Assembly: GCA_002104985.1 (NCBI GenBank)
Contig: MCGO01000003.1
Coordinates: forward strand, 620,001 to 684,000
From: Rhizoclosmatium globosum
Taxonomy: Eukaryota; Chytridiomycota; Chytridiomycetes; Chytridiales; Chytriomycetaceae
Length of the DNA stretch: 64,000 nt
Direction of reading: 5' to 3'
In this document: positions 1 through 64,000 of the stretch, piece by piece
How the letters are laid out: each line of letters begins with the position of its first letter
Numbering within the stretch: position 1 is the first letter of the stretch
Notes under the pieces: model-generated
Told to the model about the DNA's origin: nothing
Database searches by the model: none
The model's input: the letters and a program-made list of their open reading frames with translations, nothing else
Made by a program: the position numbers and the translations under genes

Positions 1-2995
1 GCTCCGGCAGTTCACTACCGACACAGCCGACACTCAAGGTGGTATTGCCTTATGAACTCGCTCCCCGCTCACTAAACCGGAATACACACTCGCCTTGTTG
101 CTCCAGAATCGCGTCCATTTCCACTCCAACTATTCATTCCAGTAACCAGCGAGAGCGCGTTGGACCAAGTCGATTCAAGGAGCCTATTGAGTGTGTTAGT
201 CCTGGCAAAGTGAGATGATAGGGGGAGGGAAGAAGATGAAGTAGAAACACAACAAAAAGTAAACTATAAAATCACATAAAGTGAAGTCCCACTAATCACA
301 CCGCTCAGGCCTCGCTCCGGCAGTTCACTACCGACACAGCCGCCACTCAAGGTGGTATTGCCTAATATACTCGCTCACCCTTTAAACACACCGCTCAGGC
401 CTCGCTCCGGCAGTTCACTACCGACACAGCCGCCACTCAAGGTGGTATTGCCTAATATACTCGCTCACCCTTTAAACACACCGCTCAGGCCTCGCTCCGG
501 CAGTTCACTACCGACACAGCCGCCACTCAAGGTGGTATTGCCTTATGAACTCGCTCCCCGCTCACTAAACCGGAATACACACTCGCCTTGTTGCTCCAGA
601 ATCGCGTCCATTTCCACTCCAACTATTCGTTCATTCCAGTAACCAGCGAGAGTGCGTCGGACCAAGTCGATTCAAGGAGTCTATTGAGTGTGTTAGTCCC
701 GCATTCTGTGAATGGAAAGGGCAAGCTACAAGTAGGAGACGTAGAAAAAAGAGTAGATGGTGGCAGATCGAAAAGAAACAAGAACAGAACCAGAATCGAA
801 AGGAAGGGCTCGCTCGCCACACTTCAAGGGAAACACACTCGCCTTAATTCCCCAGAATCGCGTCCACTTCCACTCCAACTATTCATTCCAGTAACCAGCG
901 AGAGCGCGTTGGACCAAGTCGATTCAAGGAGCCTATTGAGTGTGTTAGTCCTGGCAAAGTGAGATGATAGGGGGAGGGAAGAAGATGAAGTAGAAACACA
1001 ACAAAAAGTAAACTATAAAATCACATCAAGTGAAGTCCCACTAATCACACCGCTCAGGCCTCGCTCCGGCAGTTCACTACCGACACAGCCGCCACTCAAG
1101 GTGGTATTGCCTAATATACTCGCTCACCCTTTAAACACACCGCTCAGGCCTCGCTCCGGCAGTTCACTACCGACACAGCCGCCACTCAAGGTGGTATTGC
1201 CTAATATACTCGCTCACCCTTTAAACACACCGCTCAGGCCTCGCTCCGGCAGTTCACTACCGACACAGCCGACACTCAAGGTGGTATTGCCTTATGAACT
1301 CGCTCCCCGCTCACTAAACCGGAATACACACTCGCCTTGTTGCTCCAGAATCGCGTCCATTTCCACTCCAACTATTCATTCCAGTAACCAGCGAGAGCGC
1401 GTTGGACCAAGTCGATTCAAGGAGCCTATTGAGTGTGTTAGTCCTGGCAAAGTGAGATGATAGGGGGAGGGAAGAAGATGAAGTAGAAACACAACAAAAA
1501 GTAAACTATAAAATCACATAAAGTGAAGTCCCACTAATCACACCGCTCAGGCCTCGCTCCGGCAGTTCACTACCGACACAGCCGCCACTCAAGGTGGTAT
1601 TGCCTAATATACTCGCTCACCCTTTAAACACACCGCTCAGGCCTCGCTCCGGCAGTTCACTACCGACACAGCCGCCACTCAAGGTGGTATTGCCTAATAT
1701 ACTCGCTCCCTTTAAACACACCGCTCAGGCCTCGCTCCGGCAGTTCACTACCGACACAGCCGCCACTCAAGGTGGTATTGCCTTATGAACTCGCTCCCCG
1801 CTCACTAAACCGGAATACACACTCGCCTTGTTGCTCCAGAATCGCGTCCATTTCCACTCCAACTATTCATTCCAGTAACCAGCGAGAGTGCGTCGGACCA
1901 AGTCGATTCAAGGAGTCTATTGAGTGTGTTAGTCCCGCATTCTGTGAATGGAAAGGGCAAGCTACAAGTAGGAGACGTAGAAAAAAGAGTAGATGGTGGC
2001 AGATCGAAAAGAAACAAGAACAGAACCAGAATCGAAAGGAAGGGCTCGCTCGCCACACTTCAAGGGAAACACACTCGCCTTAATTCCCCAGAATCGCGTC
2101 CACTTCCACTCCAACTATTCATTCCAGTAACCAGCGAGAGCGCGTTGGACCAAGTCGATTCAAGGAGCCTATTGAGTGTGTTAGTCCTGGCAAAGTGAGA
2201 TGATAGGGGGAGGGAAGAAGATGAAGTAGAAACACAACAAAAAGTAAACTATAAAATCACATAAAGTGAAGTCCCACTAATCACACCGCTCAGGCCTCGC
2301 TCCGGCAGTTCACTACCGACACAGCCGCCACTCAAGGTGGTATTGCCTAATATACTTGCTCACCCTTTAAACACACCCGCTCAGGCCTCGCTCCGGCAGT
2401 TCACTACCGACACAGCCGCCACTCAAGGTGGTATTGCCTTATGAACTCGCTCCCCGCTCACTAAACCGGAATACACACTCGCCTTGTTGCTCCAGAATCG
2501 CGTCCATTTCCACTCCAACTATTCGTTCATTCCAGTAACCAGCGAGAGTGCGTCGGACCAAGTCGATTCAAGGAGTCTATTGAGTGTGTTAGTCCCGCAT
2601 TCTGTGAATGGAAAGGGCAAGCTACAAGTAGGAGACGTAGAAAAAAGAGTAGATGGTGGCAGATCGAAAGAAACAAGAACAGAACCAGAATCGAAAGGAA
2701 GGGCTCGCTCGCCACACTTCAAGGGAAACACACTCGCCTTAATTCCCCAGAATCGCGTCCACTTCCACTCCAACTATTCATTCCAGTAACCAGCGAGAGC
2801 GCGTTGGACCAAGTCGATTCAAGGAGCCTATTGAGTGTGTTAGTCCTGGCAAAGTGAGATGATAGGGGGAGGGAAGAAGATGAAGTAGAAACACAACAAA
2901 AAGTAAACTATAAAATCACATCAAGTGAAGTCCCACTAATCACACCGCTCAGGCCTCGCTCCGGCAGTTCACTACCGACACAGCCGCCACTCAAG

Positions 2996-5900
2996 GTGGT
3001 ATTGCCTAATATACTCGCTCACCCTTTAAACACACCGCTCAGGCCTCGCTCCGGCAGTTCACTACCGACACAGCCGCCACTCAAGGTGGTATTGCCTTAT
3101 GAACTCGCTCCCCGCTCACTAAACCGGAATACACACTCGCCTTGTTGCTCCAGAATCGCGTCCATTTCCACTCCAACTATTCGTTCATTCCAGTAACCAG
3201 CGAGAGTGCGTCGGACCAAGTCGATTCAAGGAGTCTATTGAGTGTGTTAGTCCCGCATTCTGTGAATGGAAAGGGCAAGCTACAAGTAGGAGACGTAGAA
3301 AAAAGAGTAGATGGTGGCAGATCGAAAAAGAAACAAGAACAGAACCAGAATCGAAAGGAAGGGCTCGCTCGCCACACTTCAAGGGAAACACACTCGCCTT
3401 AATTCCCCAGAATCGCGTCCACTTCCACTCCAACTATTCATTCCAGTAACCAGCGAGAGCGCGTTGGACCAAGTCGATTCAAGGAGCCTATTGAGTGTGT
3501 TAGTCCTGGCAAAGTGAGATGATAGGGGGAGGGAAGAAGATGAAGTAGAAACACAACAAAAAGTAAACTATAAAATCACATCAAGTGAAGTCCCACTAAT
3601 CACACCGCTCAGGCCTCGCTCCGGCAGTTCACTACCGACACAGCCGCCACTCAAGGTGGTATTGCCTAATATACTCGCTCACCCTTTAAACACACCGCTC
3701 AGGCCTCGCTCCGGCAGTTCACTACCGACACAGCCGCCACTCAAGGTGGTATTGCCTAATATACTCGCTCACCCTTTAAACACACCGCTCAGGCCTCGCT
3801 CCGGCAGTTCACTACCGACACAGCCGACACTCAAGGTGGTATTGCCTTATGAACTCGCTCCCCGCTCACTAAACCGGAATACACACTCGCCTTGTTGCTC
3901 CAGAATCGCGTCCATTTCCACTCCAACTATTCATTCCAGTAACCAGCGAGAGCGCGTTGGACCAAGTCGATTCAAGGAGCCTATTGAGTGTGTTAGTCCT
4001 GGCAAAGTGAGATGATAGGGGGAGGGAAGAAGATGAAGTAGAAACACAACAAAAAGTAAACTATAAAATCACATAAAGTGAAGTCCCACTAATCACACCG
4101 CTCAGGCCTCGCTCCGGCAGTTCACTACCGACACAGCCGCCACTCAAGGTGGTATTGCCTAATATACTCGCTCACCCTTTAAACACACCGCTCAGGCCTC
4201 GCTCCGGCAGTTCACTACCGACACAGCCGCCACTCAAGGTGGTATTGCCTTATGAACTCGCTCCCCGCTCACTAAACCGGAATACACACTCGCCTTGTTG
4301 CTCCAGAATCGCGTCCATTTCCACTCCAACTATTCGTTCATTCCAGTAACCAGCGAGAGTGCGTCGGACCAAGTCGATTCAAGGAGTCTATTGAGTGTGT
4401 TAGTCCCGCATTCTGTGAATGGAAAGGGCAAGCTACAAGTAGGAGACGTAGAAAAAAGAGTAGATGGTGGCAGATCGAAAAGAAACAAGAACAGAACCAG
4501 AATCGAAAGGAAGGGCTCGCTCGCCACACTTCAAGGGAAACACACTCGCCTTAATTCCCCAGAATCGCGTCCACTTCCACTCCAACTATTCATTCCAGTA
4601 ACCAGCGAGAGCGCGTTGGACCAAGTCGATTCAAGGAGCCTATTGAGTGTGTTAGTCCTGGCAAAGTGAGATGATAGGGGGAGGGAAGAAGATGAAGTAG
4701 AAACACAACAAAAAGTAAACTATAAAATCACATCAAGTGAAGTCCCACTAATCACACCGCTCAGGCCTCGCTCCGGCAGTTCACTACCGACACAGCCGCC
4801 ACTCAAGGTGGTATTGCCTAATATACTCGCTCACCCTTTAAACACACCGCTCAGGCCTCGCTCCGGCAGTTCACTACCGACACAGCCGCCACTCAAGGTG
4901 GTATTGCCTAATATACTCGCTCACCCTTTAAACACACCGCTCAGGCCTCGCTCCGGCAGTTCACTACCGACACAGCCGCCACTCAAGGTGGTATTGCCTT
5001 ATGAACTCGCTCCCCGCTCACTAAACCGGAATACACACTCGCCTTGTTGCTCCAGAATCGCGTCCATTTCCACTCCAACTATTCATTCCAGTAACCAGCG
5101 AGAGCGCGTTGGACCAAGTCGATTCAAGGAGCCTATTGAGTGTGTTAGTCCTGGCAAAGTGAGATGATAGGGGGAGGGAAGAAGATGAAGTAGAAACACA
5201 ACAAAAAGTAAACTATAAAATCACATAAAGTGAAGTCCCACTAATCACACCGCTCAGGCCTCGCTCCGGCAGTTCACTACCGACACAGCCGCCACTCAAG
5301 GTGGTATTGCCTAATATACTCGCTCACCCTTTAAACACACCGCTCAGGCCTCGCTCCGGCAGTTCACTACCGACACAGCCGCCACTCAAGTGGTATTGCC
5401 TTATGAACTCGCTCCCCGCTCACTAAACCGGAATACACACTCGCCTTGTTGCTCCAGAATCGCGTCCATTTCCACTCCAACTATTCGTTCATTCCAGTAA
5501 CCAGCGAGAGTGCGTCGGACCAAGTCGATTCAAGGAGTCTATTGAGTGTGTTAGTCCCGCATTCTGTGAATGGAAAGGGCAAGCTACAAGTAGGAGACGT
5601 AGAAAAAAGAGTAGATGGTGGCAGATCGAAAAGAAACAAGAACAGAACCAGAATCGAAAGGAAGGGCTCGCTCGCCACACTTCAAGGGAAACACACTCGC
5701 CTTAATTCCCCAGAATCGCGTCCACTTCCACTCCAACTATTCATTCCAGTAACCAGCGAGAGCGCGTTGGACCAAGTCGATTCAAGGAGCCTATTGAGTG
5801 TGTTAGTCCTGGCAAAGTGAGATGATAGGGGGAGGGAAGAAGATGAAGTAGAAACACAACAAAAAGTAAACTATAAAATCACATCAAGTGAAGTCCCACT

Positions 5901-7600
5901 AATCACACCGCTCAGGCCTCGCTCCGGCAGTTCACTACCGACACAGCCGCCACTCAAGGTGGTATTGCCTAATATACTCGCTCACCCTTTAAACACACCG
6001 CTCAGGCCTCGCTCCGGCAGTTCACTACCGACACAGCCGCCACTCAAGGTGTATTGCCTAATATACTCGCTCACCCTTTAAACACACCGCTCAGGCCTCG
6101 CTCCGCAGTTCACTACCGACACAGCCGCCACTCAAGGTGGTATTGCCTTATGAACTCCTCCCCGCTCACTAAACCGGAATACACACTCGCCTTGTTGCTC
6201 CAGAATCGCGTCCATTTCCACTCCAACTATTCATTCCAGTAACCAGCGAGAGCGCGTTGGACCAAGTCGATTCAAGGAGCCTATTGAGTGTGTTAGTCCT
6301 GGCAAAGTGAGATGATAGGGGGAGGGAAAAGATGAAGTAGAAACACAACAAAAAGTAAACTATAAAATCACATAAAGTGAAGTCCCACTAATCACACCGC
6401 TCAGGCCTCGCTCCGGCAGTTCACTACCGACACAGCCGCCACTCAAGGTGGTATTGCCTAATATACTCGCTCACCTTTAAACACACCGCTCAGGCCTCGC
6501 TCCGGCAGTTCACTACCGACACAGCCGCCACTCAAGTGGTATTGCCTTATGAACTCGCTCCCCGCTCACTAAACCGGAATACACACTCGCCTTGTTGCTC
6601 CAGAATCGCGTCCATTTCCACTCCAACTATTCGTTCATTCCAGTAACCAGCGAGAGTGCGTCGGACCAAGTCGATTCAAGGAGTCTATTGAGTGTGTTAG
6701 TCCCGCATTCTGTGAATGGAAAGGGCAAGCTACAAGTAGGAGACGTAGAAAAAAGAGTAGATGGTGGCAGATCGAAAAGAAACAAGAACAGAACCAGAAT
6801 CGAAAGGAAGGGCTCGCTCGCCACACTTCAAGGGAAACACACTCGCCTTAATTCCCCAGAATCGCGTCCACTTCCACTCCAACTATTCATTCCAGTAACC
6901 AGCGAGAGCGCGTTGGACCAAGTCGATTCAAGGAGCCTATTGAGTGTGTTAGTCCTGGCAAAGTGAGATGATAGGGGGAGGGAAGAAGATGAAGTAGAAA
7001 CACAACAAAAAGTAAACTATAAAATCACATCAAGTGAAGTCCCACTAATCACACCGCTCAGGCCTCGCTCCGGCAGTTCACTACCGACACAGCCGCCACT
7101 CAAGGTGGTATTGCCTAATATACTCGCTCACCCTTTAAACACACCGCTCAGGCCTCGCTCCGGCAGTTCACTACCGACACAGCCGCCACTCAAGGTGGTA
7201 TTGCCTAATATACTCGCTCACCCTTTAAACACACCGCTCAGGCCTCGCTCCGGCAGTTCACTACCGACACAGCCGCCACTCAAGGTGGTATTGCCTTATG
7301 AATCGCTCCCCGCTCACTAAACCGGAATACACACTCGCCTTGTTGCTCCAGAATCGCGTCCATTCCACTCCAACTATTCATTCCAGTAACCAGCGAGAGC
7401 GCGTTGGACCAAGTCGATTCAAGGAGCCTATTGAGTGTGTTAGTCCTGGCAAAGTGAGATGATAGGGGAGGGAAGAAGATGAAGTAGAAACACAACAAAA
7501 AGTAAACTATAAAATCACATAAAGTGAAGTCCCACTAATCACACCGCTCAGGCCTCGCTCCGGCAGTTCACTACCGACACAGCCGCCACTCAAGGTGGTA
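2996..7600 (+). repeat. Alternating long/short monomer zone (1.15-kb dimers)
   Basis: Here full monomers (A) alternate with shortened ones (B), giving points 1146-1153 bp apart (3142, 4295, 5446, 6592, 7742). B monomers lack about 256 bp present in A. In B the start of the first module (the version with TTGTTGCTCCAGAATC) is joined directly to the end of the second module (the version ending TTAGTCCTGGCAAAG). This is the product expected from recombination or slippage between the two similar modules inside one A monomer. B monomers also occur at about 1101-1594. Confidence 0.8.
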
Positions 7601-10600
7601 TTGCCTAATATACTCGCTCACCCTTTAAACACACCGCTCAGGCCTCGCTCCGGCAGTTCACTACCGACACAGCCGCCCACTCAAGGTGGTATTGCCTTAT
7701 GAACTCGCTCCCCGCTCACTAAACCGGAATACACACTCGCCTTGTTGCTCCAGAATCGCGTCCATTTCCCACTCCAACTATTCGTTCATTCCAGTAACCA
7801 GCGAGAGTGCGTCGGACCAAGTCGATTCAAGGAGTCTATTGAGTGTGTTAGTCCCGCATTCTGTGAATGGAAAGGGCAAGCTACAGTAGGAGACGTAGAA
7901 AAAAGAGTAGATGGTGGCAGATCGAAAAGAAACAACAACAGAACCAGAATCGAAAGGAAGGGCTCGCTCGCCACACTTCAAGGGAAACACACTCGCCTTA
8001 ATTCCCCAGAATCGCGTCCATTTCCACTCCAATTATTCATTCCAGTAACCAGCGAGAGCGCGTTGGACCAAGTCGATTCAAGGAGCCTATTGAGTGTGTT
8101 AGTCCTGGCAAAGTGAGATGATAGGGGGAGGGAAGAAGATGAAGTAGAAACACAACAAAAAGTAAACTATAAAATCACATAAAGTGAAGTCCCACTAATC
8201 ACACCGCTCAGGCCTCGCTCCGGCAGTTCACTACCGACACAGCCGCCACTCAAGGTGGTATTGCCTAATATACTCGCTCACCCTTTAAACACACCGCTCA
8301 GGCCTCGCTCCGGCAGTTCACTACCGACACAGCCGCCACTCAAGGTGGTATTGCCTTATGAACTCGCTCCCCGCTCACTAAACCGGAATACACACTCGCC
8401 TTGTTGCTCCAGAATCGCGTCCATTTCCACTCCAACTATTCGTTCATTCCAGTAACCAGCGAGAGTGCGTCGGACCAAGTCGATTCAAGGAGTCTATTGA
8501 GTGTGTTAGTCCCGCATTCTGTGAATGGAAAGGGCAAGCTACAAGTAGGAGACGTAGAAAAAAGAGTAGATGGTGGCAGATCGAAAAGAAACAACAACAG
8601 AACCAGAATCGAAAGGAAGGGCTCGCTCGCCACACTTCAAGGGAAACACACTCGCCTTAATTCCCCAGAATCGCGTCCACTTCCACTCCAACTATTCATT
8701 CCAGTAACCAGCGAGAGCGCGTTGGACCAAGTCGATTCAAGGAGCCTATTGAGTGTGTTAGTCCTGGCAAAGTGAGATGATAGGGGGAGGGAAGAAGATG
8801 AAGTAGAAACACAACAAAAAGTAAACTATAAAATCACATAAAGTGAAGTCCCACTAATCACACCGCTCAGGCCTCGCTCCGGCAGTTCACTACCGACACA
8901 GCCGCCACTCAAGGTGGTATTGCCTAATATACTCGCTCACCCTTTAAACACACCGCTCAGGCCTCGCTCCGGCAGTTCACTACCGACACAGCCGCCACTC
9001 AAGGTGGTATTGCCTTATGAACTCGCTCCCCGCTCACTAAAACCGGAATACACACTCGCCTTGTTGCTCCAGAATCGCGTCCATTTCCACTCCAACTATT
9101 CGTTCATTCCAGTAACCAGCGAGAGTGCGTCGGACCAAGTCGATTCAAGGAGTCTATTGAGTGTGTTAGTCCCGCATTCTGTGAATGGAAAGGGCAAGCT
9201 ACAAGTAGGAGACGTAGAAAAAAGAGTAGATGGTGGCAGATCGAAAAGAAACAAGAACAGAACCAGAATCGAAAGGAAGGGCTCGCTCGCCACACTTCAA
9301 GGGAAACACACTCGCCTTAATTCCCCAGAATCGCGTCCATTTCCACTCCAATTATTCATTCCAGTAACCAGCGAGAGCGCGTTGGACCAAGTCGATTCAA
9401 GGAGCCTATTGAGTGTGTTAGTCCTGGCAAAGTGAGATGATAGGGGGAGGGAAGAAGATGAAGTAGAAACACAACAAAAAGTAAACTATAAAATCACATA
9501 AAGTGAAGTCCCACTAATCACACCGCTCAGGCCTCGCTCCGGCAGTTCACTACCGACACAGCCGCCACTCAAGGTGGTATTGCCTAATATACTCGCTCAC
9601 CCTTTAAACACACCGCTCAGGCCTCGCTCCGGCAGTTCACTACCGACACAGCCGCCACTCAAGGTGGTATTGCCTAATATACTCGCTCACCCTTTAAACA
9701 CACCGCTCAGGCCTCGCTCCGGCAGTTCCCTACCGACACAGCCGCCACTCAAGGTGGTATTGCCTTATGAACTCGCTCACCCTTTAAACACACCGCTCAG
9801 GCCTCGCTCCGGCAGTTCACTACCGACACAGCCGCCACTCAAGGTGGTATTGCCTTATGAACTCGCTCCCCGCTCACTAAACCGGAATACACACTCGCCT
9901 TGTTGCTCCAGAATCGCGTCCATTTCCACTCCAACTATTCGTTCATTCCAGTAACCAGCGAGAGTGCGTCGGACCAAGTCGATTCAAGGAGTCTATTGAG
10001 TGTGTTAGTCCCGCATTCTGTGAATGGAAAGGGCAAGCTACAAGTAGGAGACGTAGAAAAAAGAGTAGATGGTGGCAGATCGAAAAGAAACAAGAACAGA
10101 ACCAGAATCGAAAGGAAGGGCTCGCTCGCCACACTTCAAGGGAAACACACTCGCCTTAATTCCCCAGAATCGCGTCCATTTCCACTCCAATTATTCATTC
10201 CAGTAACCAGCGAGAGCGCGTTGGACCAAGTCGATTCAAGGAGCCTATTGAGTGTGTTAGTCCTGGCAAAGTGAGATGATAGGGGGAGGGAAGAAGATGA
10301 AGTAGAAACACAACAAAAAGTAAACTATAAAATCACATAAAGTGAAGTCCCACTAATCACACCGCTCAGGCCTCGCTCCGGCAGTTCACTACCGACACAG
10401 CCGCCACTCAAGGTGGTATTGCCTAATATACTCGCTCACCCTTTAAACACACCGCTCAGGCCTCGCTCCGGCAGTTCACTACCGACACAGCCGCCACTCA
10501 AGGTGGTATTGCCTAATATACTCGCTCACCCTTTAAACACACCGCTCAGGCCTCGCTCCGGCAGTTCACTACCGACACAGCCGCCACTCAAGGTGGTATT

Positions 10601-11397
10601 GCCTTATGAACTCGCTCACCCTTTAAACACACCGCTCAGGCCTCGCTCCGGCAGTTCACTACCGACACAGCCGCCACTCAAGGTGGTATTGCCTTATGAA
10701 CTCGCTCCCCGCTCACTAAACCGGAATACACACTCGCCTTGTTGCTCCAGAATCGCGTCCATTTCCACTCCAACTATTCGTTCATTCCAGTAACCAGCGA
10801 GAGTGCGTCGGACCAAGTCGATTCAAGGAGTCTATTGAGTGTGTTAGTCCCGCATTCTGTGAATGGAAAGGGCAAGCTACAAGTAGGAGACGTAGAAAAA
10901 AGAGTAGATGGTGGCAGATCGAAAAGAAACAAGAACAGAACCAGAATCGAAAGGAAGGGCTCGCTCGCCACACTTCAAGGGAAACACACTCGCCTTAATT
11001 CCCCAGAATCGCGTCCATTTCCACTCCAATTATTCATTCCAGTAACCAGCGAGAGCGCGTTGGACCAAGTCGATTCAAGGAGCCTATTGAGTGTGTTAGT
11101 CCTGGCAAAGTGAGATGATAGGGGGAGGGAAGAAGATGAAGTAGAAACACAACAAAAAGTAAACTATAAAATCACATAAAGTGAAGTCCCACTAATCACA
11201 CCGCTCAGGCCTCGCTCCGGCAGTTCACTACCGACACAGCCGCCACTCAAGGTGGTATTGCCTAATATACTCGCTCACCCTTTAAACACACCGCTCAGGC
11301 CTCGCTCCGGCAGTTCACTACCGACACAGCCGCCACTCAAGGTGGTATTGCCTTATGAACTCGCTCCCCGCTCACTAAACCGGAATACACACTCGCC

Positions 11398-13825: not shown

Positions 13826-15266
13826 TGTTGCTCCAGAATCGCGTCCATTTCCACTGCAACTATTCGTTCATTCCAGTAACCAGCGAGAGTGCGTCGGACC
13901 AAGTCGATTCAAGGAGTCTATTGAGTGTGTTAGTCCCGCATTCTGTGAATGGAAAGGGCAAGCTACAGGTAGGAGACGTAGAAGAAAGAGTAGATGGTGG
14001 CAGATCGAAAAGAAACAAGAACAGAACCAGAATCGAAAGGAAGGGCTCGCTTGCCACACTTCAAGGGAAACACACTCGCCTTAATTCCCCAGAATCGCGT
14101 CCATTTCCACTCCAACTATTCATTCCAGTAACCAGCGAGAGCGCGTTGGACCAAGTCAATTCAAGGAGCCTATTGAGTGTGTTAGTCCTGGCAAAGTGAG
14201 ATGATAGGGGGAGGGAAGAAGATGAAGTAGAAACACAACAAAAAGTAAACTATAAAATCACATAAAGTGAAGTCCCACTAATCACACCGCTCAGGCCTCG
14301 CTCCGGCAGTTCACTACCGACACAGCCGCCACTCAAGGTGGTATTGCCTAATATACTCGCTCACCCTTTAAACACACCGCTCAGGCCTCGCTCCGGCAGT
14401 TCACTACCGACACAGCCGCCACTCAAGGTGGTATTGCCTAATATACTCGCTCACCCTTTAAACACACCGCTCAGGCCTCGCTCCGGCAGTTCACTACCGA
14501 CACAGCCGCCACTCAAGGTGGTATTGCCTAATATACTCGCTCACCCTTTAAACACACCGCTCAGGCCTCGCTCCGGCAGTTCACTACCGACACAGCCGCC
14601 ACTCAAGGTGGTATTGCCTTATGAACTCGCTCCCCGCTCACTAAACCGGAATACACACTCGCCTTGTTGCTCCAGAATCGCGTCCATTTCCACTCCAACT
14701 ATTCGTTCATTCCAGTAACCAGCGAGAGTGCGTCGGACCAAGTCGATTCAAGGAGTCTATTGAGTGTGTTAGTCCCGCATTCTGTGAATGGAAAGGGCAA
14801 GCTACAAGTAGGAGACGTAGAAAAAAGAGTAGATGGTGGCAGATCGAAAAGAAACAAGAACAGAACCAGAATCGAAAGGAAGGGCTCGCTCGCCACACTT
14901 CAAGGGAAACACACTCGCCTTAATTCCCCAGAATCGCGTCCACTTCCACTCCAACTATTCATTCCAGTAACCAGCGAGAGCGCGTTGGACCAAGTCGATT
15001 CAAGGAGCCTATTGAGTGTGTTAGTCCTGGCAAAGTGAGATGATAGGGGAGGGAAGAAGATGAAGTAGAAACACAACAAAAAGTAAACTATAAAATCACA
15101 TAAAGTGAAGTCCCACTAATCACACCGCTCAGGCCTCGCTCCGGCAGTTCACTACCGACACAGCCGCCACTCAAGGTGGTATTGCCTTATGAACTCGCTC
15201 CCCGCTCACTAAACCGGAATACACACTCGCCTTGTTGCTCCAGAATCGCGTCCATATCCACTCCAA

Positions 15267-20239: not shown

Positions 20240-20278
<39 letters not shown>

Positions 20279-45779: not shown

Positions 45780-45831
45780 TGTTTTGGTTGGTTGGTTGGT
45801 TTAAACAAACAGAACAAAAGAGTAGTGCAAA
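45780..45831. promoter_or_regulatory. Very short divergent intergenic region
   Basis: Only about 52 bp separate the MON2 start (minus strand) from the isochorismatase-family start (plus strand). The interval contains a TTGG-type tandem (GTTTTGGTTGGTTGGTTGGTT) and no TATA box. Core promoter elements must overlap the neighbouring 5' ends. Confidence 0.4.
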
Positions 45832-46666: not shown

Positions 46667-46700
46667 AATGTTTGAATAAATAACAACCATTTTGTTTTAA

Positions 46701-48210: not shown

Positions 48211-48294
48211 CTTTTGCGAATCTCGTCTTTGAGCGACAAACACAAGTCAGATATCTTTGAATTCATGGTGCAAAAACGCTTTAAATCAAGATTA

Positions 48295-48999: not shown

Positions 49000-49076
49000 T
49001 TCTTTTTTGTTTTGATTGATTGTGCAAAATACAAACGAAAATACCAAAGCAACTTATTGCAACAGAGCAAATAAAA

Positions 49077-49520: not shown

Positions 49521-49579
49521 TGTTTTGATTTTGAGTGGCGAATGAGTTTGAAAAATTTATAACACTGACGTTTATTATA

Positions 49580-49973: not shown

Positions 49974-50059
49974 CTCAACTCCTTCGTGGATTTTAAAAAA
50001 TCAAAGGTTAATAAAAGTTGATGGGATTCATTCATCATCGTTGGGACGACACAACATTC

Positions 50060-52966
50060 ATGAACGAACAAGACGATACGGCAGCACCACTCGAATCGGA
50101 AGCACAGGCAGTGAATGAAGGCATCAACGAAGGCAGCGACGGCGACGGCACCAGCGACGATTCATGGATCGTTTCAGAAGGCGTTGACGATCGCGTGTTT
50201 TGCAGCGCCGTCGTTGATTCTGCGCACGTGGACCAGGCGACGCTTTGGAAGGAAGATCGGCTGTGGCGCTCGGTTGTTTCCGGTCTCTTGGACGAGCTCA
50301 AAGACGAGGCTCAGACGATTCGGCAAGGATCGTTGCTGCCGAGGGCCTACGAACGAGGCGCTGAAGGGTGCGTATTAGATTAGATCAAATTAGAGTAGAG
50401 CAGTGGTGGAAGCGAGTGGGGAGTTGTTTGAAACGAGTGATGTTGGTGGGATGAGATCCAGAAAGTGCGCACTGCCACATCACTGTCGAAAGACGGCCGA
50501 ATAGCTAAAGACATGCTTATCGAGTAGATGGAATATTGGTATAAGATGCTGGATAGTACTTACGTCTACGCGGACTGTCTTCATCTGAAATGTCTTGGCA
50601 TTGGAGATTAACATACTCAATCAGTGAAACTATTCTGCACATCGCAGTGCTTCTCGGCCACGAAGAGCTGGTGGAATGGATTCTCGAACGCTTTCCAGAT
50701 TTGGTCAACGAAATCTATTTGAAAGACACTTATTGTGGTGAGACAGCACTTCATGTTGCTGTGATGAAGTTGAAAACGGGAACGAGAATGTGGTCAAGAT
50801 GCTTTTGAAAGCTGGTGCAGATGTAAATGCAGCTCCTGTCACGGGAGCAGCGTTTTTCAACGGTAGTCAAATCGTTTTTAATTGCACCTTGAATACTCAT
50901 CAATTTGATTAGACCAAGACAAGCTACAACTATACTATGGTCAAACAATTCTGCAATTTGCTGCCGCAAACCGGCAAGAAGGCATAACTCAATTACTTTT
51001 GGATGCCGGTGCCCATCTGGATGCCGTTGACTTTTACGGTACGTTCTGTGCACTTCTTTCGTGTGTACGACTCATTTATAATTGAAAAGGAAATAACGTT
51101 CTGCATGTCTTGGCTTTTCTCGGCAACTTTGATCTCAACTTCTTCTTAAAACTCAAAGACCGGAACCTTCGCGATATTGACAACAAAGTCCTGGGAGCAC
51201 ATGGAACAGTTGTTAAGAACCTCATGAAAGAACGCAATCACGATGGTCTAACGCCTTTTCAAGTCGGAATTGCGAGGGGCATCCAAAATCATTGATTGCA
51301 TCAAAGAAATCAAGTGGACTGTAGGTTTCCCTTGTCATTAAGTGCTTATATACTACTTTTCGCTAGTTTGGAGACGCATGTGAATACGAAGTCACTCTGG
51401 AAGACATTGATTCCATCCAACCAGTTGTCCCATCTTCCACAAAAGAACCTCATATCAACTCTACGCAACATGTTTCTGCGTTAGAAATGGCCGTAGAAGG
51501 AGACACAAGCAGATTGTCGATCATCCATTGTTTTTTGCATTGGTAAACGCAAAGTGGCTTCATTATGGTCGCCGATTCTTCCTCTTTCGCCTTCTTGGTG
51601 CCGCCTTCCTCATTATAGTTGTGACTCTCGCTATTTCCTACAACCATCATCAATGGTGGAACGCGCCTCATATACTTTTGACTTACGCCTCATTTCTGAA
51701 ATTGCTTCTCTCGTCGGCGTTACCAATTTGTTCAATTCAACAGCAATAGCCTTGAATTTCAGCGCGGCATATATTTACGTCAGATAAAGCAGCAGTTCCA
51801 TGGATATTCAGTCTTTCTCTTCTTGCGGTTGTCGCTGAACGATTCCTTGTCTCGTTTCTTCCAATACTTTCCCTCTTTCCAACTCTCGAAACCCCGCTGC
51901 TTCATTTTGAAAACATTTTCTGGGTATGAGTGCCGTGTTGGGCTGGCTGAATCTCCTTTACTACTCAAACGGATTTAGAAACATTGGTCCGCTTGTTCTC
52001 ATTTTCCGCAAAGTTTTATTTGTCGACTTGCGCGAGTGGTTACTCCTCTATGCCATGTTTACTGCCGGTTTTGCAGCTGCATTCAATTTACAGATGAAAG
52101 ACGCACATTTGAACAATTCGTCAATTTTGGATTGGGAAAGCTATCATGGTGCCGTGATTTGGACAGTTCGATTCGTTTTTGGAGGCGGTAATTACGATGA
52201 CTTCAGGGAGAGTCAGTTTCCCGTCTTTACGGCTGGTCTGTTCTTCCTCTATGGTTTCTTGGTGCTTGTTCTACTCGTGAATATCTTTATTGCGAAACTG
52301 AGTACAACGTACGAGATCATCAGTGAGGATTCCACACGTCTTTGGAAGCTACAGTTTGCGTCTTTGATGTTGGGTGAGTTTTCCTGAACCTTATGTTGGT
52401 CTATTTATCACTTAAATCACCATGTAGATATTGACAGTCGTCTCAGCCCAGAAATGCAGGCTAAGATTGCGTCCAATTTGGATGGCGCGACTCTGCATTT
52501 GCTGGAAAACCCCTGACCCTCTTGACCGCCGCTTTGTTTCACGGAACGCTTACAACCAACATCCGATGGAAAAACTTCGGAGCCAACAACACTACAAATC
52601 AAAATTGGAAAACGTGTGTATCCTGACGGAAGAGAAGTTGCATCTTGATGGTCCCTGACGCCCATTCATGGGGTGGATTCTTTGTGGATATATTGTACCG
52701 GTGGCCATTAGAAGCGATTGTGAACCCGAATGTGCTGTATGAAAGTTGGTTGAGTGCGAGGAAGCGAATGAACATGTTGGCAAGAAGAAGGGACGGGTTG
52801 TTGAAGAGCCTAAGTGGGAATCCTCTGAAAGTGCAAGAAGAAAGCAGCAGGCTGTTGAGTCTGCAAAAGCTGTTGAGAGGCAAAAAGTTTTTGCAGCAAG
52901 GGAGATGATGGTGGGCAAGAGCACAGTTGCCTTTGTTCCTTCTGTTGTTGATTCCCAAATTAGATA
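50060..52966 (+). CDS. TRPV-like cation channel gene, disrupted by frame slips
   Basis: Starts MNEQDDTAAPLESEAQ at 50,060. A 257-bp intron (50,368-50,624) leads to ankyrin repeats: GETILHIAVLLGHEELVEWI, ENVVKMLLKAGADVNA, GITQLLLDAGAHLDAV and NNVLHVLAFLGNFDLN. Then come WTFGDACEYEV, DHPLFFALVNAKWLHYGRRF (as in TRPV before S1), and membrane segments S1-S6: RLISEIASLVG, SAVLGWLNLLYYSNGF (S4 region), FVDLREWLLLYAMFTAG (S5), a pore stretch GAVIWTVRFVFGGGNYDD, and FLVLVLLVNIFIAKLSTTYE (S6). The C-terminus is cytosolic and charged. The frame must shift at least eight times, near 50,772, 51,270, 51,500, 51,650, 51,790, 51,928, 52,514 and 52,745. Either this stretch is poorly sequenced or the gene is decaying. 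If intact it would be a Ca2+-permeable channel of the plasma or a ciliary membrane. Confidence 0.7.
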
Positions 52967-53025
52967 GATTATTTTGTGAAAACATTATATAATGAAATCA
53001 GAAATTTATTGTTATGCAAAATGAT

Positions 53026-54100
53026 TCAGCTGTCTCTATCGTTTGGGATATCATTCAACTTCCGTTCTGGTTGGGGATGCAACACTTGAAACAATGGTGT
53101 CAATATCTCTGGTCCCAACATAATCGGGTCCACACATCGCCTCATTCCACTTGTGATCATATCTTCTGCCATAGAATTCAATAAACCATCCTCACTAATC
53201 ATTCCAAAGCTTCCAGTCCTCAACATTCGCTTCAGCACTGCACTATCAACTTAAACTCGATGGAGTCAGTTGGCCCAAGAGTCTGCATCCTGATTTTCTC
53301 ATGTAGCACTATCATATTATATGTCAACAGGACTCTGAAACACAAGACACATACCTTGACAAAATCTTCAACAAAGCCGACAAAATGCCGTCCCTCGACA
53401 TATCCAAATTCTTGAATAGTCTGCACGTTCATCAAACATGCGGTCAATGTTATCCAAAAGCGCATCAAACTTGCCCCCGCCATTGCACCCCAACTGACCC
53501 CAGTTTAGCAACTTTCCCAAACTGTGGGCTCGCTGACGAAGCATTACTATTCCCCGAAAACACACCACTCACACTCTTCCCAATCTTGTTCATATTCCGA
53601 TTCGGAGATACAGAAGCACTCCCTGAAACATGAAGACTCGGTGGTCCACCCAACCGTCGTCCACCCCTCCCGTTCCTTCATACACAATCTTCAATTATCT
53701 CAATCCCTTCACAGCACCCAACACTTCTTTCGCCCACCGTCCGTCAACCGTATCAACAGGCGAATCGTCCATCCATCGTGTTTCTTTGATATACCGCGAA
53801 CAGTGGTACAAAGTCTGCTCGACGCAGTGACAACGAACCGTAATGCACGACTTTGCGCAATACCTCTCCATTCCCCGCTCTTCCCCTTCCCCCGCTTCAG
53901 AACCTGTAGATTCCTTGGATCCAAGTCCGCATGTTCCTTGATGGCAGTGTTGGGGGTTTTGGCTTCAAAACGTTTGCATTCAACAGCTTGATTTGCTGAA
54001 CAGCGAGTTGCGCAATAGGATCCAACCCAGATTCTGAAGGTGACGCGGCTGAGTTTCTCTTCATAATTGCAAGCTCTTGGAGTGTTGAGTCAATACGCCG
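53026..54100 (-). pseudogene. Broken, 5'-truncated gene of unknown function
   Basis: A minus-strand gene in many frame fragments: VWRRIDSTLQELAIMKRNSA near the breakpoint, DPIAQLAVQQIKLLNANVLK, AIKEHADLDPRNLQVLKRGK (reached by adding one A to an AAAA run), WMDDSPVDTVDGRWAKEVLG, KFDALLDNIDRMFDERADYS, an intron GTATGT...GATAG, VLHEKIRMQTLGPTDSIEF, and a clean last part (LKRMLRTGSFGMISEDGLLN, CVDPIMLGPEILTPL) ending at 53,026. Its 5' end stops where the truncated arrestin copy begins, so the inserted block may have cut off its promoter and first exon. I do not recognise the family. Confidence 0.45.
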
Positions 54101-56716
54101 CCACACCTGCATTGTTAGTGGCGGCCATTTCGAGAAGCGGATCAGTTTGGGAGAGTAACGAGCTCCGCCATAGGACAGTGGGCTCAGAGTTGTAGAAGAA
54201 AGCGTCGCCACACTTGCCAACAAGGACTGCTTCCAGACTGAGGGGCTTTAACTCCTCACGATTGATTCTACTTTGAGCATGCAGGAACAAGGGGAGGTTG
54301 ATCCGTACTCCGCCTTCGATCTGGGTTGTGCCAGAGTCTTCGTGCAGCTGGGTGGGGATGATTGAGATTTCCATAACCAAAACAATCGCATAATGAACTT
54401 TCTTATCAATTTTAGAAACAGATTATTGTGCCACGATTCCTGCACAATACACATTATTCAGTTTTGACCCTTCTTTCCCCGTTTTTCTTCTCAACTGATT
54501 CCCTTTCCCACCCCACCACCGTGTCAGAATGCTTAGTCCTGAATCGTCCATGATGCCACACTTTCCTTTCCTATTAGTCTAAGCACTCGTGTTTCCCATT
54601 TATTGTTTGCGGGAACTGCCTTGTTGGTTGTTATATCATGTCTCAATGTGTCTCGCAAGTGATAGGAGCAGCTGCCTATGAATCTATACTCATTCTTAAG
54701 GCACTTAGGCACAACTTCAAGTTGTTGAATCATAAGCCAGTTCATTCCACGAGTGTTGTGGCTATTTAAGGGTCCAAGATTGACGCCTCAAAACCAACAT
54801 TGTCATGAACAATTGGCAGTGTTTTACACTGTTCGAAATTGTGTTATTTGCTGTTATTCGAAGATTATCTTGATTCTTGGACTACCTGGCTCTCATCCAT
54901 TGCATTCTTTCATTCATGTGCCCAATCAAAATACATACCAACTATGTGAAAAATATCAAAAATATCCAAAGCTTGCCTTCACTTCTTTGAGCGCCTATTA
55001 GAAACGTCCGTAACTATTATTGGTTAAATCTACATGGAATACAGCGCGATATTGCACAGCGCACAAAAAAACCAACTAAATGTGAATGGGAATAATCAAG
55101 TGAATATTTCACATAAACAAAGTTCAATTGCAGTGGTGACTTGAAAGGAAGCAAAGCAAACAAGCGAATCAGACGAAACTTGAACACCCTGGAATCTGTT
55201 ACATAAACGATGTGAATAATCATTTCGACTCAAATTATCTGAATCCGCAAGTTTCATTCAGCGCTCAGTCGTCAACGCCATCCGAGTTGGATCACCTCTC
55301 TTCCAGAAATCCCCCATTAATTCCCGACCATCTCGTTCAGAAGCGAAAAGAAGGTGAGCTGTTTCGAATTGTCGCATTTTTCTTTCATCCAAACGCGCTC
55401 TTCTCTTTTCCCTCGACAGGTTGATTCCCCCCTCCTCTCTGCACACCCCCGCTTCACCTCCGATCACCTTCTGCTTGATGCCCAAATACTAATACGATTT
55501 TTACCATGCTAATAGAACTATACTCAAGTCCAACCGTCGCTCGGAGGTCGAGGTCGCCCTGGTGTTGGTCAAGTCCAAGTCATCCACGGTCCTCTGAGCA
55601 CCTCCCAGACACCGCCAGATCTTCCAGAGCTACTAAGGCACTACTCTAAGCTTTCTTGGTGGTCCACTGGTGAACGTCGCGTCTGAGTCGCTTTGTTGTC
55701 GTCTCAGGTGGTTCCATCCAAAGGTACTCGGCTCTTCGGTGCTCCCCCAAGAGCCATCCAGATCGTCTCCAGTCTCTTCTGGTCCACTCAACGCTGGTTT
55801 TGGACCCAAGTTGGAACTACACGCCGGCCACAAGACTTGGACCTCTTCCGTCATGCCTTCTCTGATTGTCCCTTCAACTGAAAACATCCAATAACTTCAC
55901 CACCTTGTTGCACGTCATACTCTCTACCTTCGGAAACGTAAGATTGCTTTATTTGTGATCGCCTCCTCTTTTCTCCTCCTTCCCTGTCACCTTATGTCAA
56001 ACTTGGTAACTAACAGCTTTTTCTCCAGCGAGTCCACCCGCTCTCACCTGCTCGCTTTCAAGACATGACACGGTATCCGACGTTGATCAACGACCTTGTC
56101 TCTTGTCTTCAACGACCTGTCAACCCCTCGAAAAATTCTGACAATTCTGGACCAAAAAATTGTTCCACTCCAGTCGACTGTACCTCACTTGTCTCGTTGG
56201 TCACTCAAGATATCCACTAGGTTCCTTGTTTTAATATGCTGCCGTGAGTATCCAACTTTTAAACCCAAAACGAGGTATTTTGGTTTGCATCTATTTCCTT
56301 CACTATTCCTCTGATTCTTCTTTCACTTCACACTGATACGTTCACTCTTAACAGATTTGCGACCATCCGTAGCATTCTTCCAACGCTCAAGACACTGCCT
56401 ACTGCGGAAGGAACTCATGGCCCGCCTATCAGCACTCAGCTGTGTTCCACCAAAAACGCACAAGACTGATCTTTCTGAATCACGTTTAACAGACCTGGTT
56501 GCTTTGCATCCGCTAGTCAGACTCTTTGAGTGTTTGGTATGTACTTTTTTTTTCCTCCCCAAACCTGACAATCCAAACACATCCAACAGATCAACGACAC
56601 CAACAAATACTGCCCAACAAACTACTCATATACTTTCAATGGTTTGTTTTTCTTTCGTCTTTCCACAAAAAATAATTCTCACCACTCTCTTGTCCAGGCA
56701 CAACTTTTGGTCAACG
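54101..56716 (-). repeat. Right arm of non-satellite inverted repeat
   Basis: Reverse-complement copy of 15,300-17,960, ending on the inside within the arrestin fragment and on the outside at the satellite boundary. It has about the same length, with scattered substitutions and indels, more in the non-coding part than in the arrestin fragment. Apart from the arrestin fragment and the degenerate spliced gene I see no other feature; 54,375-55,230 holds nothing I can support as coding. Confidence 0.9.
54106..54374 (-). pseudogene. Truncated copy of arrestin-like gene, 5' end only
   Basis: The minus strand repeats the first ~90 codons of the gene at 17,681, from MEISIIPTQL to EMAATNNAG, with one amino-acid change seen (LSQTDP for LSQSDP). 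Identity stops at CAATGCAGGTG(G)TGGCGG. The left copy goes on into the arrestin exon, while this one turns into unrelated sequence with a stop soon after. It has no arrestin fold and is a by-product of copying the subtelomere-like block. The breakpoint has about 6-10 bases of shared sequence (TGGCGG and neighbours). Confidence 0.88.
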
Positions 56717-56745
56717 ACTGACGACCATGCCTCACGGGAATGAAT
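55230..56745 (+). pseudogene. Degenerate intron-containing gene, right copy
   Basis: Counterpart of the left-arm relic, on the plus strand. Intron-like segments are conserved: about 55,940-56,029 (GTAAGA...CTAACAG), 56,244-56,354 (GTGAGT...TTAACAG), 56,537-56,589 (GTATGT...CCAACAG) and about 56,641-56,698 (GTTTGT...GTCCAG). The exon after the second intron is open here (PFATIRSILPTLKTLPTAEG to KNAQD) where the left copy is shifted. This copy instead has CAA changed to TAA (ENIQ then stop) just before the first intron, and further indels. Different lesions in the two copies suggest independent decay of one ancestral spliced gene. Function unknown. Confidence 0.45.
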
Positions 56746-59700
56746 AGTTGGAGTGGATATGGACGGATTCTGGGAATTAAGGCGAGTGTGTTTCCCTTGA
56801 AGTGTGGCGAGCGAGCCCTTCCTTTCGATTCTGGTTCTGTTCTTGTTTCTTTTCGATCTGCCACCATCTACTCTTTTTTCTACGTCTCCTACTGTAGCTT
56901 GCCCTTTCCATTCACAGAATGCGGGACTAACACACTCAATAGACTCCTTGAATCGACTTGGTCCGACGCACTCTCGCTGGTTACTGGAATGAACGAATAG
57001 TTGGATGGAAATGGACGCGATTCTGGAGCAACAAGGCGAGTGTGTATTCGGTTTAGTGAGCGGGGAGCGAGTTCATAAGGCAATACCACCTTGAGTGGCG
57101 GCTGTGTCGGTAGTGAACTGCCGGAGCGAGGCCTGAGCGGTGTGTTTAAAGGGTGAGCGAGTATATTAGGCAATACCACCTTGAGTGGCGGCTGTGTCGG
57201 TAGTGAACTGCCGGAGCGAGGCCTGAGCGGTGTGATTAGTGGGACTTCACTTTATGTGATTTTATAGTTTACTTTTTGTTGTGTTTCTACTTCATCTTCT
57301 TCCCTCCCCCTATCATCTCACTTTGCCAGGACTAACACACTCAATAGGCTCCTTGAATCGACTTGGTCCAACGCGCTCTTGCTTGTTACTGGAATGAATA
57401 GTTGGAGTGGATATGGACGCGATTCTGGGGAATTAAGGCGAGTGTGTTTCCCTTGAAGTGTGGCGAGCGAGCCCTTCCTTTCGATTCTGGTTCTGTTCTT
57501 GTTTCTTTTCGATCTGCCACCATCTACTCTTTTTTCTACGTCTCCTACTGTAGCTTGCCCTTTCCATTCACAGAATGCGGGACTAACACACTCAATAGAC
57601 TCCTTGAATCGACTTGGTCCGACGCACTCTCGCTGGTTACTGGAATGAACGAATAGTTGGAGTGGAAATGGACGCGATTCTGGAGCAACAAGGCGAGTGT
57701 GTATTCCGGTTTAGTGAGCGGGGAGCGAGTTCATAAGGCAATACCACCTTGAGTGGCGGCTGTGTCGGTAGTGAACTGCCGGAGCGAGGCCTGAGCGGTG
57801 TGTTTAAAGGGTGAGCGAGTATATTAGGCAATACCACCTTGAGTGGCGGCTGTGTCGGTAGTGAACTGCCGGAGCGAGGCCTGAGCGGTGTGATTAGTGG
57901 GACTTCACTTTATGTGATTTTATAGTTTACTTTTTGTTGTGTTTCTACTTCATCTTCTTCCCTCCCCCTATCATCTCACTTTGCCAGGACTAACACACTC
58001 AATAGGCTCCTTGAATCGACTTGGTCCAACGCGCTCTTGCTTGTTACTGGAATGAATAGTCGGAGTGGATATGGACGCGATTCTGGGGAATTAAGGCGAG
58101 TGTGTTTCCCTTGAAGTGTGGCGAGCGAGCCCTTCCTTTCGATTCTGGTTCTGTTCTTGTTTCTTTTCGATCTGCCACCATCTACTCTTTTTTCTACGTC
58201 TCCTACTGTAGCTTGCCCTTTCCATTCACAGAATGCGGGACTAACACACTCAATAGACTCCTTGAATCGACTTGGTCCGACGCACTCTCGCTGGTTACTG
58301 GAATGAACGAATAGTTGGAGTGGAAATGGACGCGATTCTGGAGCAACAAGGCGAGTGTGTATTCCGGTTTAGTGAGCGGGGAGCGAGTTCATAAGGCAAT
58401 ACCACCTTGAGTGGCGGCTGTGTCGGTAGTGAACTGCCGGAGCGAGGCCTGAGCGGTGTGTTTAAAGGGTGAGCGAGTATATTAGGCAATACCACCTTGA
58501 GTGGCGGCTGTGTCGGTAGTGAACTGCCGGAGCGAGGCCTGAGCGGTGTGATTAGTGGGACTTCACTTTATGTGATTTTATAGTTTACTTTTTGTTGTGT
58601 TTCTACTTCATCTTCTTCCCTCCCCCTATCATCTCACTTTGCCAGGACTAACACACTCAATAGGCTCCTTGAATCGACTTGGTCCAACGCGCTCTTGCTT
58701 GTTACTGGAATGAATAGTCGGAGTGGATATGGACGCGATTCTGGGGAATTAAGGCGAGTGTGTTTCCCTTGAAGTGTGGCGAGCGAGCCCTTCCTTTCGA
58801 TTCTGGTTCTGTTCTTGTTTCTTTTCGATCTGCCACCATCTACTCTTTTTTCTACGTCTCCTACTGTAGCTTGCCCTTTCCATTCACAGAATGCGGGACT
58901 AACACACTCAATAGACTCCTTGAATCGACTTGGTCCGACGCACTCTCGCTGGTTACTGGAATGAACGAATAGTTGGAGTGGAAATGGACGCGATTCTGGA
59001 GCAACAAGGCGAGTGTGTATTCCGGTTTAGTGAGCGGGGAGCGAGTTCATAAGGCAATACCACCTTGAGTGGCGGCTGTGTCGGTAGTGAACTGCCGGAG
59101 CGAGGCCTGAGCGGTGTGTTTAAAGGGTGAGCGAGTATATTAGGCAATACCACCTTGAGTGGCGGCTGTGTCGGTAGTGAACTGCCGGAGCGAGGCCTGA
59201 GCGGTGTGATTAGTGGGACTTCACTTTATGTGATTTTATAGTTTACTTTTTGTTGTGTTTCTACTTCATCTTCTTCCCTCCCCCTATCATCTCACTTTGC
59301 CAGGACTAAACACTCAATAGGCTCCTTGGTCGACGCACTCTCGCTGGTTACTGGATGAACGATAGTTGAGTGGAAATGGACGCGATTCTGGAGCAACAGG
59401 CGAGTGTGTATTCCGGTTTAGTGAGCGGGGAGCGAGTTCATAAGGCAATACCACCTTGAGTGGCGGCTGTGTCGGTAGTGAACTGCCGGAGCGAGGCCTG
59501 AGCGGTGTGATTAGTGGGACTTCACTTTATGTGATTTTATAGTTTACTTTTTGTTGTGTTTCTACTTCATCTTCTTCCCTCCCCCTATCATCTCACTTTG
59601 CCAGGACTAACACACTCAATAGGCTCCTTGAATCGACTTGGTCCAACGCGCTCTTGCTGTTACTGGAATGAATAGTCGGAGTGGATATGGACGCGATTCT

Positions 59701-62700: not shown

Positions 62701-64000
62701 AGGGTGAGCGAGTATATTAGGCAATACCACCTTGAGTGGCGGCTGTGTCGGTAGTGAACTGCCGGAGCGAGGCCTGAGCGGTGTGATTAGTGGGACTTCA
62801 CTTTATGTGATTTTATAGTTTACTTTTTGTTGTGTTTCTACTTCATCTTCTTCCCTCCCCCTATCATCTCACTTTGCCAGGACTAACACACTCAATAGGC
62901 TCCTTGAATCGACTTGGTCCGACGCACTCTCGCTGGTTACTGGAATGAACGAATAGTTGGAGTGGAAATGGACGCGATTCTGGAGCAACAAGGCGAGTGT
63001 GTATTCCGGTTTAGTGAGCGGGGAGCGAGTTCATAAGGCAATACCACTTGAGTGGCGGCTGTGTCGGTAGTGAACTGCCGGAGCGAGGCCTGAGCGGTGT
63101 GATTAGTGGGACTTCACTTTATGTGATTTTATAGTTTACTTTTTGTTGTGTTTCTACTTCATCTTCTTCCCTCCCCCTATCATCTCACTTTGCCAGGACT
63201 AACACACTCAATAGGCTCCTTGAATCGACTTGGTCCAACGCGCTCTTGCTTGTTACTGGAATGAATAGTCGGAGTGGATATGGACGCGATTCTGGGGAAT
63301 TAAGGCGAGTGTGTTTCCCTTCCTTTCGATTCTGGTTCTGTTCTTGTTTCTTTTCGATCTGCCACCATCTACTCTTTTTTCTACGTCTCCTACTGTAGCT
63401 TGCCCTTTCCATTCACAGAATGCGGGACTAACACACTCAATAGACTCCTTGAATCGACTTGGTCCGACGCACTCTCGCTGGTTACTGGAATGAACGAATA
63501 GTTGGAGTGGAAATGGACGCGATTCTGGAGCAACAAGGCGAGTGTGTATTCCGGTTTAGTGAGCGGGGAGCGAGTTCATAAGGCAATACCACCTTGAGTG
63601 GCGGCTGTGTCGGTAGTGAACTGCCGGAGCGAGGCCTGAGCGGTGTGTTTAAAGGGTGAGCGAGTATATTAGGCAATACCACCTTGAGTGGCGGCTGTGT
63701 CGGTAGTGAACTGCCGGAGCGAGGCCTGAGTGGTGTGATTAGTGGGACTTCACTTTATGTGATTTTATAGTTTACTTTTTGTTGTGTTTCTACTTCATCT
63801 TCTTCCCTCCCCCTATCATCTCACTTTGCCAGGACTAACACACTCAATAGGCTCCTTGAATCGACTTGGTCCAACGCGCTCTTGCTTGTTACTGGAATGA
63901 ATAGTCGGAGTGGATATGGACGCGATTCTGGGGAATTAAGGCGAGTGTGTTTCCCTTCCTTTCGATTCTGGTTCTGTTCTTGTTTCTTTTCGATCTGCCA
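56727..64000 (-). repeat. Right satellite array, inverted relative to the left array
   Basis: The same composite satellite in reverse orientation, with corresponding points at 57,837, 58,495, 59,153, 60,110, 60,765, 62,072, 62,730 and 63,682. It consists mostly of uniform 655-658 bp monomers. Two shortened monomers (about 59,309-59,600 and 62,880-63,180) lack the interval between the two internal modules, like the B class on the left. Right monomers carry diagnostic variants (GTCCATATCCACTCCGACTA; TAACAAGCAAGAGCGCG) rare or absent on the left. It runs off the right edge of the window. Confidence 0.93.

What the first reader, a model, noticed from the sequence alone, without database searches (positions are those of the whole stretch)
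1..64000. Gene island flanked by inverted satellite arrays and matching inner blocks
Seen: the left array (+) with its adjoining 2.7-kb block and the right array (-) with the same block form a giant interrupted inverted repeat around about 36 kb of single-copy genes. Known: matching subtelomeres at both ends of a linear chromosome have exactly this orientation. Inference: either this is close to a complete tiny chromosome or extrachromosomal linear element, an internal satellite-bounded inverted duplication, or a chimeric contig. The internal genes include core functions (MON2, PEX3, QCR10), which argues against a mobile element.
Basis: partly seen in the sequence, partly recalled or inferred. 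Interest (0 to 1): 0.75.

Follow-up and report, generated by a model that had tools for sequence, protein, structure and literature searches.

The report
Inverted satellite arrays inside chytrid chromosome
Two facing satellite-DNA arrays in a chytrid fungus turn out to be copies of one local repeat block inside a long piece of chromosome, not the two ends of a tiny chromosome, and they appear to have kept exchanging sequence while changing length.

Summary
In detail: a satellite array plus a 2.7-kb block (window 1-17958, +) recurs inverted at 54098-64000, around 36 kb of genes. The small-chromosome reading does not hold. The window is bases 620001-684000 of a 944,327-bp contig. The left array runs on to a 12.6-kb gene core and a third inverted array plus block; the right array ends beside VPS51. 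Two other contigs, most likely the second haplotype, repeat the array edges, so a chimera is unlikely. All 295 genome-wide hits of a satellite 26-mer lie at this locus. The right copy is the derived one: its block holds a truncated copy of a first exon that is whole only at the left block, and it abuts a partial duplicate of the VPS51 3' end. Consensus units of the two window arrays differ at 6 of 570 positions, their blocks at 4.4%, and all three arrays differ in length between haplotypes. Best explanation: a locus-specific complex satellite, copied in inverted orientation by an ectopic insertion, still turning over and probably exchanging sequence between inverted copies. New member of a known kind; moderate interest.

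The parts
1..15203 (+). Right-hand 15.2 kb of satellite array A2 (whole array C223:616423-635203): 90-bp monomers in runs of 1-5 separated by longer linkers
15204..17958 (+). Block B2, the source copy; its outer end lies inside the first exon of the neighbouring gene
16503..16737 (+). Noncoding segment in B2 with a 70% identical relative in the core between A1 and A2 (C223:610554-610779)
17681..21792 (+). Gene conserved in chytrids (function unknown), whose first exon begins inside B2
   Evidence: tblastn of P0049 and P0052; translation. The predicted protein P0048 starts further in, at window 17927
17959..52838 (.). Gene island of ordinary chromosomal genes (GH18 pair, ThrE-like, MON2, PEX3, IBR)
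52839..54098 (+). F: partial direct copy of the VPS51 3' part (F', C223:685027-687411), lacking 1,141 bp
54098..56795 (-). Block B3, inverted copy of B2
54105..54374 (-). Truncated copy (90 codons, one amino acid different) of the first exon that is whole at B2
55323..55548 (-). B3 copy of the noncoding segment
56734..64000 (-). Left-hand 7.3 kb of satellite array A3 (whole array C223:676734-685025)

Best explanation
This is an internal chromosomal locus with a locus-specific complex satellite. Shown by sequence: array A2 adjoins block B2, which holds the start of an ordinary gene; an inverted copy (B3-A3) lies 36 kb away beside VPS51, next to a partial duplicate (F) of the VPS51 3' part; a third inverted copy (B1-A1) lies across a 12.6-kb gene core; the arrays differ in length between two haplotypes. 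Inferred: A2-B2 is the source of A3-B3, which was copied by break repair or template switching into the flank of VPS51, duplicating part of that flank; the arrays lengthen and shorten by unequal exchange or slippage; and the inverted copies have exchanged sequence since the duplication. The inverted layout is then a result of how the copies arose; no function of it is shown.
For: Internal to a 944-kb contig. Three array-plus-block units in alternating orientation. Array edges repeated on C138 and C115, which are colinear with C223. All 295 of 295 genome hits of a satellite 26-mer (up to 3 mismatches) in these three contigs. First exon whole at B2, cut after 90 codons in B3. VPS51 homologues run through F' and only in pieces through F. 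Array lengths, C223 against the other haplotype: A1 11.2/8.2 kb, A2 18.8/11.3 kb, A3 8.3/at least 16.1 kb. A2-A3 consensus 6 of 570 different, against about 4.4% between B2 and B3 (Fisher p 3e-5) and about 6% between F and F' (p 9e-8). In five block sequences 31 of 45 informative sites group non-allelic copies, and like patterns are clustered (19 runs, 36.1 expected; none of 20,000 shuffles as few).
Against: No reads were seen, so array lengths rest on the assembly, and assemblers often misjudge tandem arrays. Haplotype status of C138 and C115 is inferred; the middle of the island (C223:663000-666000) has no second copy in the assembly, and B3 of the second haplotype is missing except its edge. 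Selective constraint on the units could also keep arrays alike. The origin of B1-A1 is unexplained: no flanking duplicate was found there. Three exchange tests rest on numbers I derived from printed percentages.
Confidence: 0.85

Rival explanations
1. The window is nearly a whole tiny chromosome or linear extrachromosomal element with matching subtelomeres at its ends.
For: Orientation of the two arrays and blocks in the window.
Against: Contig goes on for 620 kb to the left and 260 kb to the right; third array to the left; no TTAGGG runs on C223 where looked for; VPS51 and an ABC transporter gene beyond the right array.
Confidence: 0.01
2. Assembly chimera or false join through the repeat.
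For: Long, highly similar arrays are a usual place for false joins (general knowledge); C138 and C115 themselves end in this region.
Against: Same order and orientation on a second contig for A1, core, A2, B2 and 22 kb of island, and for A3 with its right flank on a third contig. The join across the island itself (C223:660640-676677) rests on C223 alone.
Confidence: 0.05
3. The array-plus-block is a mobile element (foldback or similar transposon with tandem repeats in its ends).
For: Several inverted copies; tandem repeats inside transposon ends are known (Tetris, PMC4079207, abstract).
Against: Copies only at this locus: block search found 6 places, 6 of 6 candidates scored, all on C223, C138, C115; block edge lies inside a host exon; the repeat flanking A3-B3 is over 1.2 kb of host gene, not a short target repeat. 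A transposase was not searched for as such; the ORFs of block and array that I scanned had no Pfam match.
Confidence: 0.04
4. A1-core-A2 is a centromere of the kind with a core between inverted repeats.
For: 12.6-kb core between inverted arrays on both haplotypes.
Against: The core carries aldo/keto reductase and WD40 ORFs above Pfam cut-offs; the satellite is at one locus only, though chromosome-specific sequences remain possible; a third array lies 36 kb off.
Confidence: 0.03

Closest known systems
Satellite arrays in macro-dyad symmetry in Tribolium madens (PMC13081366; abstract read)
   Same: Satellite arrays arranged as large inverted repeats, with a possible role of the layout
   Different: There they fill megabase regions of all chromosomes; here one locus, tens of kilobases, among genes
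Transposed genes flanked by genic direct repeats in Arabidopsis (PMC2869330; abstract read)
   Same: A copied segment flanked by direct repeats that derive from genic sequence of the target site
   Different: Here the copied segment is a satellite array with a promoter-side block, only about 36 kb from its source and inverted; no empty site could be compared
Tetris foldback transposon and its satellite in Drosophila virilis (PMC4079207; abstract read)
   Same: Tandem repeats within inverted repeats, giving rise to longer arrays
   Different: No copies outside this locus and no transposon ends recognised here; the block edge lies in a host exon

Membership tests
Complex satellite DNA (higher-order repeat) | Head-to-tail tandem units of high identity | tested here: met
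Complex satellite DNA (higher-order repeat) | Larger unit built of smaller monomers | tested here: met
   Runs of 90-bp monomers with linkers; about 407-bp unit in A1, longer unit with L2 in A2 and A3
Complex satellite DNA (higher-order repeat) | High abundance in the genome | tested here: not met
   295 monomer hits, all at one locus on two haplotypes; hence called locus-specific
Complex satellite DNA (higher-order repeat) | Heterochromatic packing | not testable with these tools
   no chromatin data
Subtelomere pair of a small chromosome | Telomere repeats or contig ends beyond the arrays | tested here: not met
Foldback or other inverted-repeat transposon | Copies dispersed in the genome | tested here: not met
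Foldback or other inverted-repeat transposon | Recognisable transposon ends and short target repeats | tested here: inconclusive
   Edges printed and read by eye; block edge in a host exon; no systematic search
Segment copied with flanking genic direct repeats | Direct repeats of the target's genic sequence on both sides of the insert | tested here: met
   F and F' on either side of B3-A3, VPS51 sequence
Segment copied with flanking genic direct repeats | Empty target site in a relative | not testable with these tools
   no DNA of a relative held; both haplotypes have the A3/F' edge
Regional centromere with inverted repeats | CENP-A or kinetochore protein on the core | not testable with these tools
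   no chromatin data
Regional centromere with inverted repeats | Core without ordinary genes (recalled as usual in fungi) | tested here: not met

The most novel reading that the evidence does not exclude
The three inverted arrays form one interacting system: pairing between inverted arrays tens of kilobases apart keeps their units alike, raises divergence in the adjoining blocks, and a noncoding segment found only here (one in each block, one in the core) is kept under constraint, perhaps as a pairing or chromatin element of this chromosome.
Probability: 0.07. Interest if true: 0.65.

Novelty: new member of a known kind. Interest (0 to 1): 0.33.

Why it matters
It corrects a tempting reading (a tiny chromosome) and gives a compact case in a chytrid fungus where the source copy, the derived copy, the duplicated target and two haplotypes of a local satellite can be read side by side. 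Whether inverted satellite arrays exchange sequence without inverting or losing the chromosome between them then becomes testable by sequencing further isolates.

Tried and rejected
Tiny chromosome, chimera, transposon and centromere: see rival explanations. RNA gene in the block: no Rfam match at gathering level in the window or in ten 10-kb stretches of C223, none at E up to 1 for window 14300-17990, and for the core segment two hits far below their cut-offs (E 7.8 and 9.3). Folding z-scores: block -1.6 (+) and -0.3 (-), core +1.5 (+) and +1.6 (-); the consensus fold has an unfavourable covariation term, with 6 of 90 pairs keeping pairing through change on both sides. A structured RNA is not supported. 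tRNA genes: none found in the window or in ten stretches. Coding in the array and block: four ORFs scanned without Pfam match at E 0.1 (window 14625-15035, 15565-16044, 17492-18088 and 56315-56740). Mutation bias in the blocks: 49 transitions and 57 transversions among singletons, G to A the commonest (24 of 106); not a clear repeat-induced pattern. An arrestin label for the gene at B2 was dropped: 13.6 bits against a cut-off of 24.9. I first guessed R. globosum JEL800 as the organism (search, listing only); a best hit of 53% to R. globosum for one protein does not support it. Papers: searches (1,067 papers, 12 listed; 17, 10 listed; 53, 12 listed; 52, 10 listed) showed no paper on this locus in the rows seen; that is all that was searched. 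One search listed two papers, seen as listing only.

Full report
What is there. In the window, array A2 (1-15203, +) with block B2 (15204-17958, +), and block B3 (54098-56795, -) with array A3 (56734-64000, -), enclose 36.1 kb. The blocks align inverted over 2,781 columns at 93.0%, far beyond chance.

Setting. The window is bases 620001-684000 of contig C223 (944,327 bp) in a 56.9-Mb assembly of 420 contigs. To the left, A2 reaches 616423; then come a 12.6-kb core (603800-616420), a third array A1 (-, 592629-603800) and a shorter block B1 (-, 591015-592726). The core holds ORFs with aldo/keto reductase and WD40 matches above cut-off and a zinc-finger match below it. To the right, A3 ends at 685025; VPS51 and an ABC transporter gene follow. 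Four exact TTAGGG units occur 90 times, overlapping hits counted, on 16 contigs, not on C223. Runs of two or more units are absent from C223:570001-734000, 1-10000 and 934001-944327; the rest of C223 was not read. One island protein is 99% identical to a protein of Rhizoclosmatium sp. JEL0117 and 97% (over 66% of the query) to one of R. hyalinum; for another the best hit is 70%, in Obelidium. A Rhizoclosmatium-like chytrid is inferred.

Two haplotypes. C138 (60,555 bp, all read) is colinear with C223:589515-660639, and C115 (first 50,000 of 67,541 bp read) with 684873-725891 apart from insertions. Identity of aligned sites between C138 and C223 is 99.5% (left flank), 99.0% (core) and 98.5% (island). 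The right end of C223 has a 98% counterpart on C210, while C223:663000-666000 has none. Haplotype contigs are the simplest reading; paralogous duplicates are not strictly excluded. C138 repeats both edges of A1 and A2; C115 repeats the right edge of A3 and, by about 40-56 bp, its left edge. The edge between F and B3 is seen on C223 only.

One locus. A 26-mer of the monomer has 295 hits in the genome with up to 3 mismatches: 161 in the C223 stretch, 80 in C138, 54 in C115, which is all of them. The block search gave six places, six of six candidates scored, on the same three contigs.

Direction of copying. Relatives of the gene next to B2 (P0049 from R. hyalinum, P0052 from Obelidium) align from C223:637708 and 637681, inside B2, and on into the island; the prediction P0048 starts later, at 637927. 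So the outer edge of B2 (637958) lies in the first exon. B3 holds the same exon for 90 codons, one amino acid different, then other sequence and a stop. Beside B3, F (672839-674098) is a direct partial copy of F' (685027-687411). Homologues of VPS51 run through F' in successive exons, but match F only in pieces, and F lacks 1,141 bp. B2 and F' are therefore the originals. Repair of a staggered break with fill-in, or template switching, would leave F, B3 and A3 as seen; that step is inferred. F-F' (93.7% and 94.9% for its two pieces) and B2-B3 (95.6% of aligned sites) are further apart than alleles of unique sequence, and the A3/F' edge is on both haplotypes, so the event is older than their split. 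How B1-A1 arose is open.

Turnover. Array lengths in C223 and on the other contigs: A1 11.2 and 8.2 kb; A2 18.8 and 11.3 kb; A3 8.3 and at least 16.1 kb. Monomer hits: 57 and 40, 78 and 40, 26 and 54. A1 is built mainly of a unit of about 407 bp; A2 and A3 mainly of a longer one with an extra segment, L2, absent from A1.

Exchange. Consensus sequences from 124 L1 and 70 L2 segments were compared (matches shorter than 215 and 320 bp were dropped and not counted). Differences over 570 positions: A2-A3 on C223 6; A2 alleles 8; A3 alleles 5; A2 of C223 with A3 of C115 3; A2 of C138 with A3 of C223 5; A2 of C138 with A3 of C115 8. Arrays at different places are thus as alike as alleles. By contrast B2-B3 differ at about 114 of 2,589 sites (p 3e-5) and F-F' at about 77 of 1,243 (p 9e-8). 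For A1-A2 it is 6 of 227, against about 117 of 1,601 for B1-B2 (p 0.007) (block and F counts derived from percentages). In the five block sequences 14 of 45 informative sites group alleles and 31 do not: 3 of 22 allelic in the first 900 columns, next to the arrays, and 7 of 9 in columns 900-1500; a cluster of B2-B3 sites on C223 lies at 1529-1603. Like patterns cluster: 19 runs where 36.1 are expected, and none of 20,000 shuffles had as few. This suits patchy exchange. Against it: constraint on the units could also keep them alike, the second-haplotype B3 is missing, and allelic divergence near the arrays is high (up to 10% in 200-250-bp bins of B1 and B2), which exchange or a raised local mutation rate could cause.

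Noncoding segment. About 230 bp in each block (C223:636503-636737 in B2) resemble C223:610554-610779 in the core at about 70%. The core copy is identical on both haplotypes over 261 bp, as is much of the core around it. A pattern of 23 places with up to 2 mismatches has 7 hits, all in this locus. No frame is open throughout in the block or core copy; no Rfam match, no convincing fold. The role is unknown.

Verdict. Comparisons with known cases rest on three abstracts.

Noticed in passing
C223:697711-707750 (L020, L021): About 10 kb present on C223 and absent at the matching place on C115 (position 28959); two ORFs scanned from it had no Pfam match. Possibly a mobile insertion.
   Followed up: partly
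C115:46854-49769 (L034): About 2.9 kb present on C115 and absent on C223 near 725660.
   Followed up: no
window 16503-16737, 55323-55548; C223:610554-610779 (L018): Noncoding segment found only at this locus, one in each block and one in the core, with no RNA family match.
   Followed up: partly
C223:605800-611800 (L017, L018): Middle of the core almost without differences between haplotypes (0.0-0.2% in 500-bp bins, 1.2% in one), while its outer parts reach 2-4%.
   Followed up: no
window 24339-27078 and 27253-30002: Tandem pair, 82% identical, each with a GH18 (chitinase-type) match.
   Followed up: no
whole assembly: Of 90 hits of four TTAGGG units, 89 are on the forward strand and one on the reverse, an oddly one-sided pattern for contigs of arbitrary orientation.
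   Followed up: no
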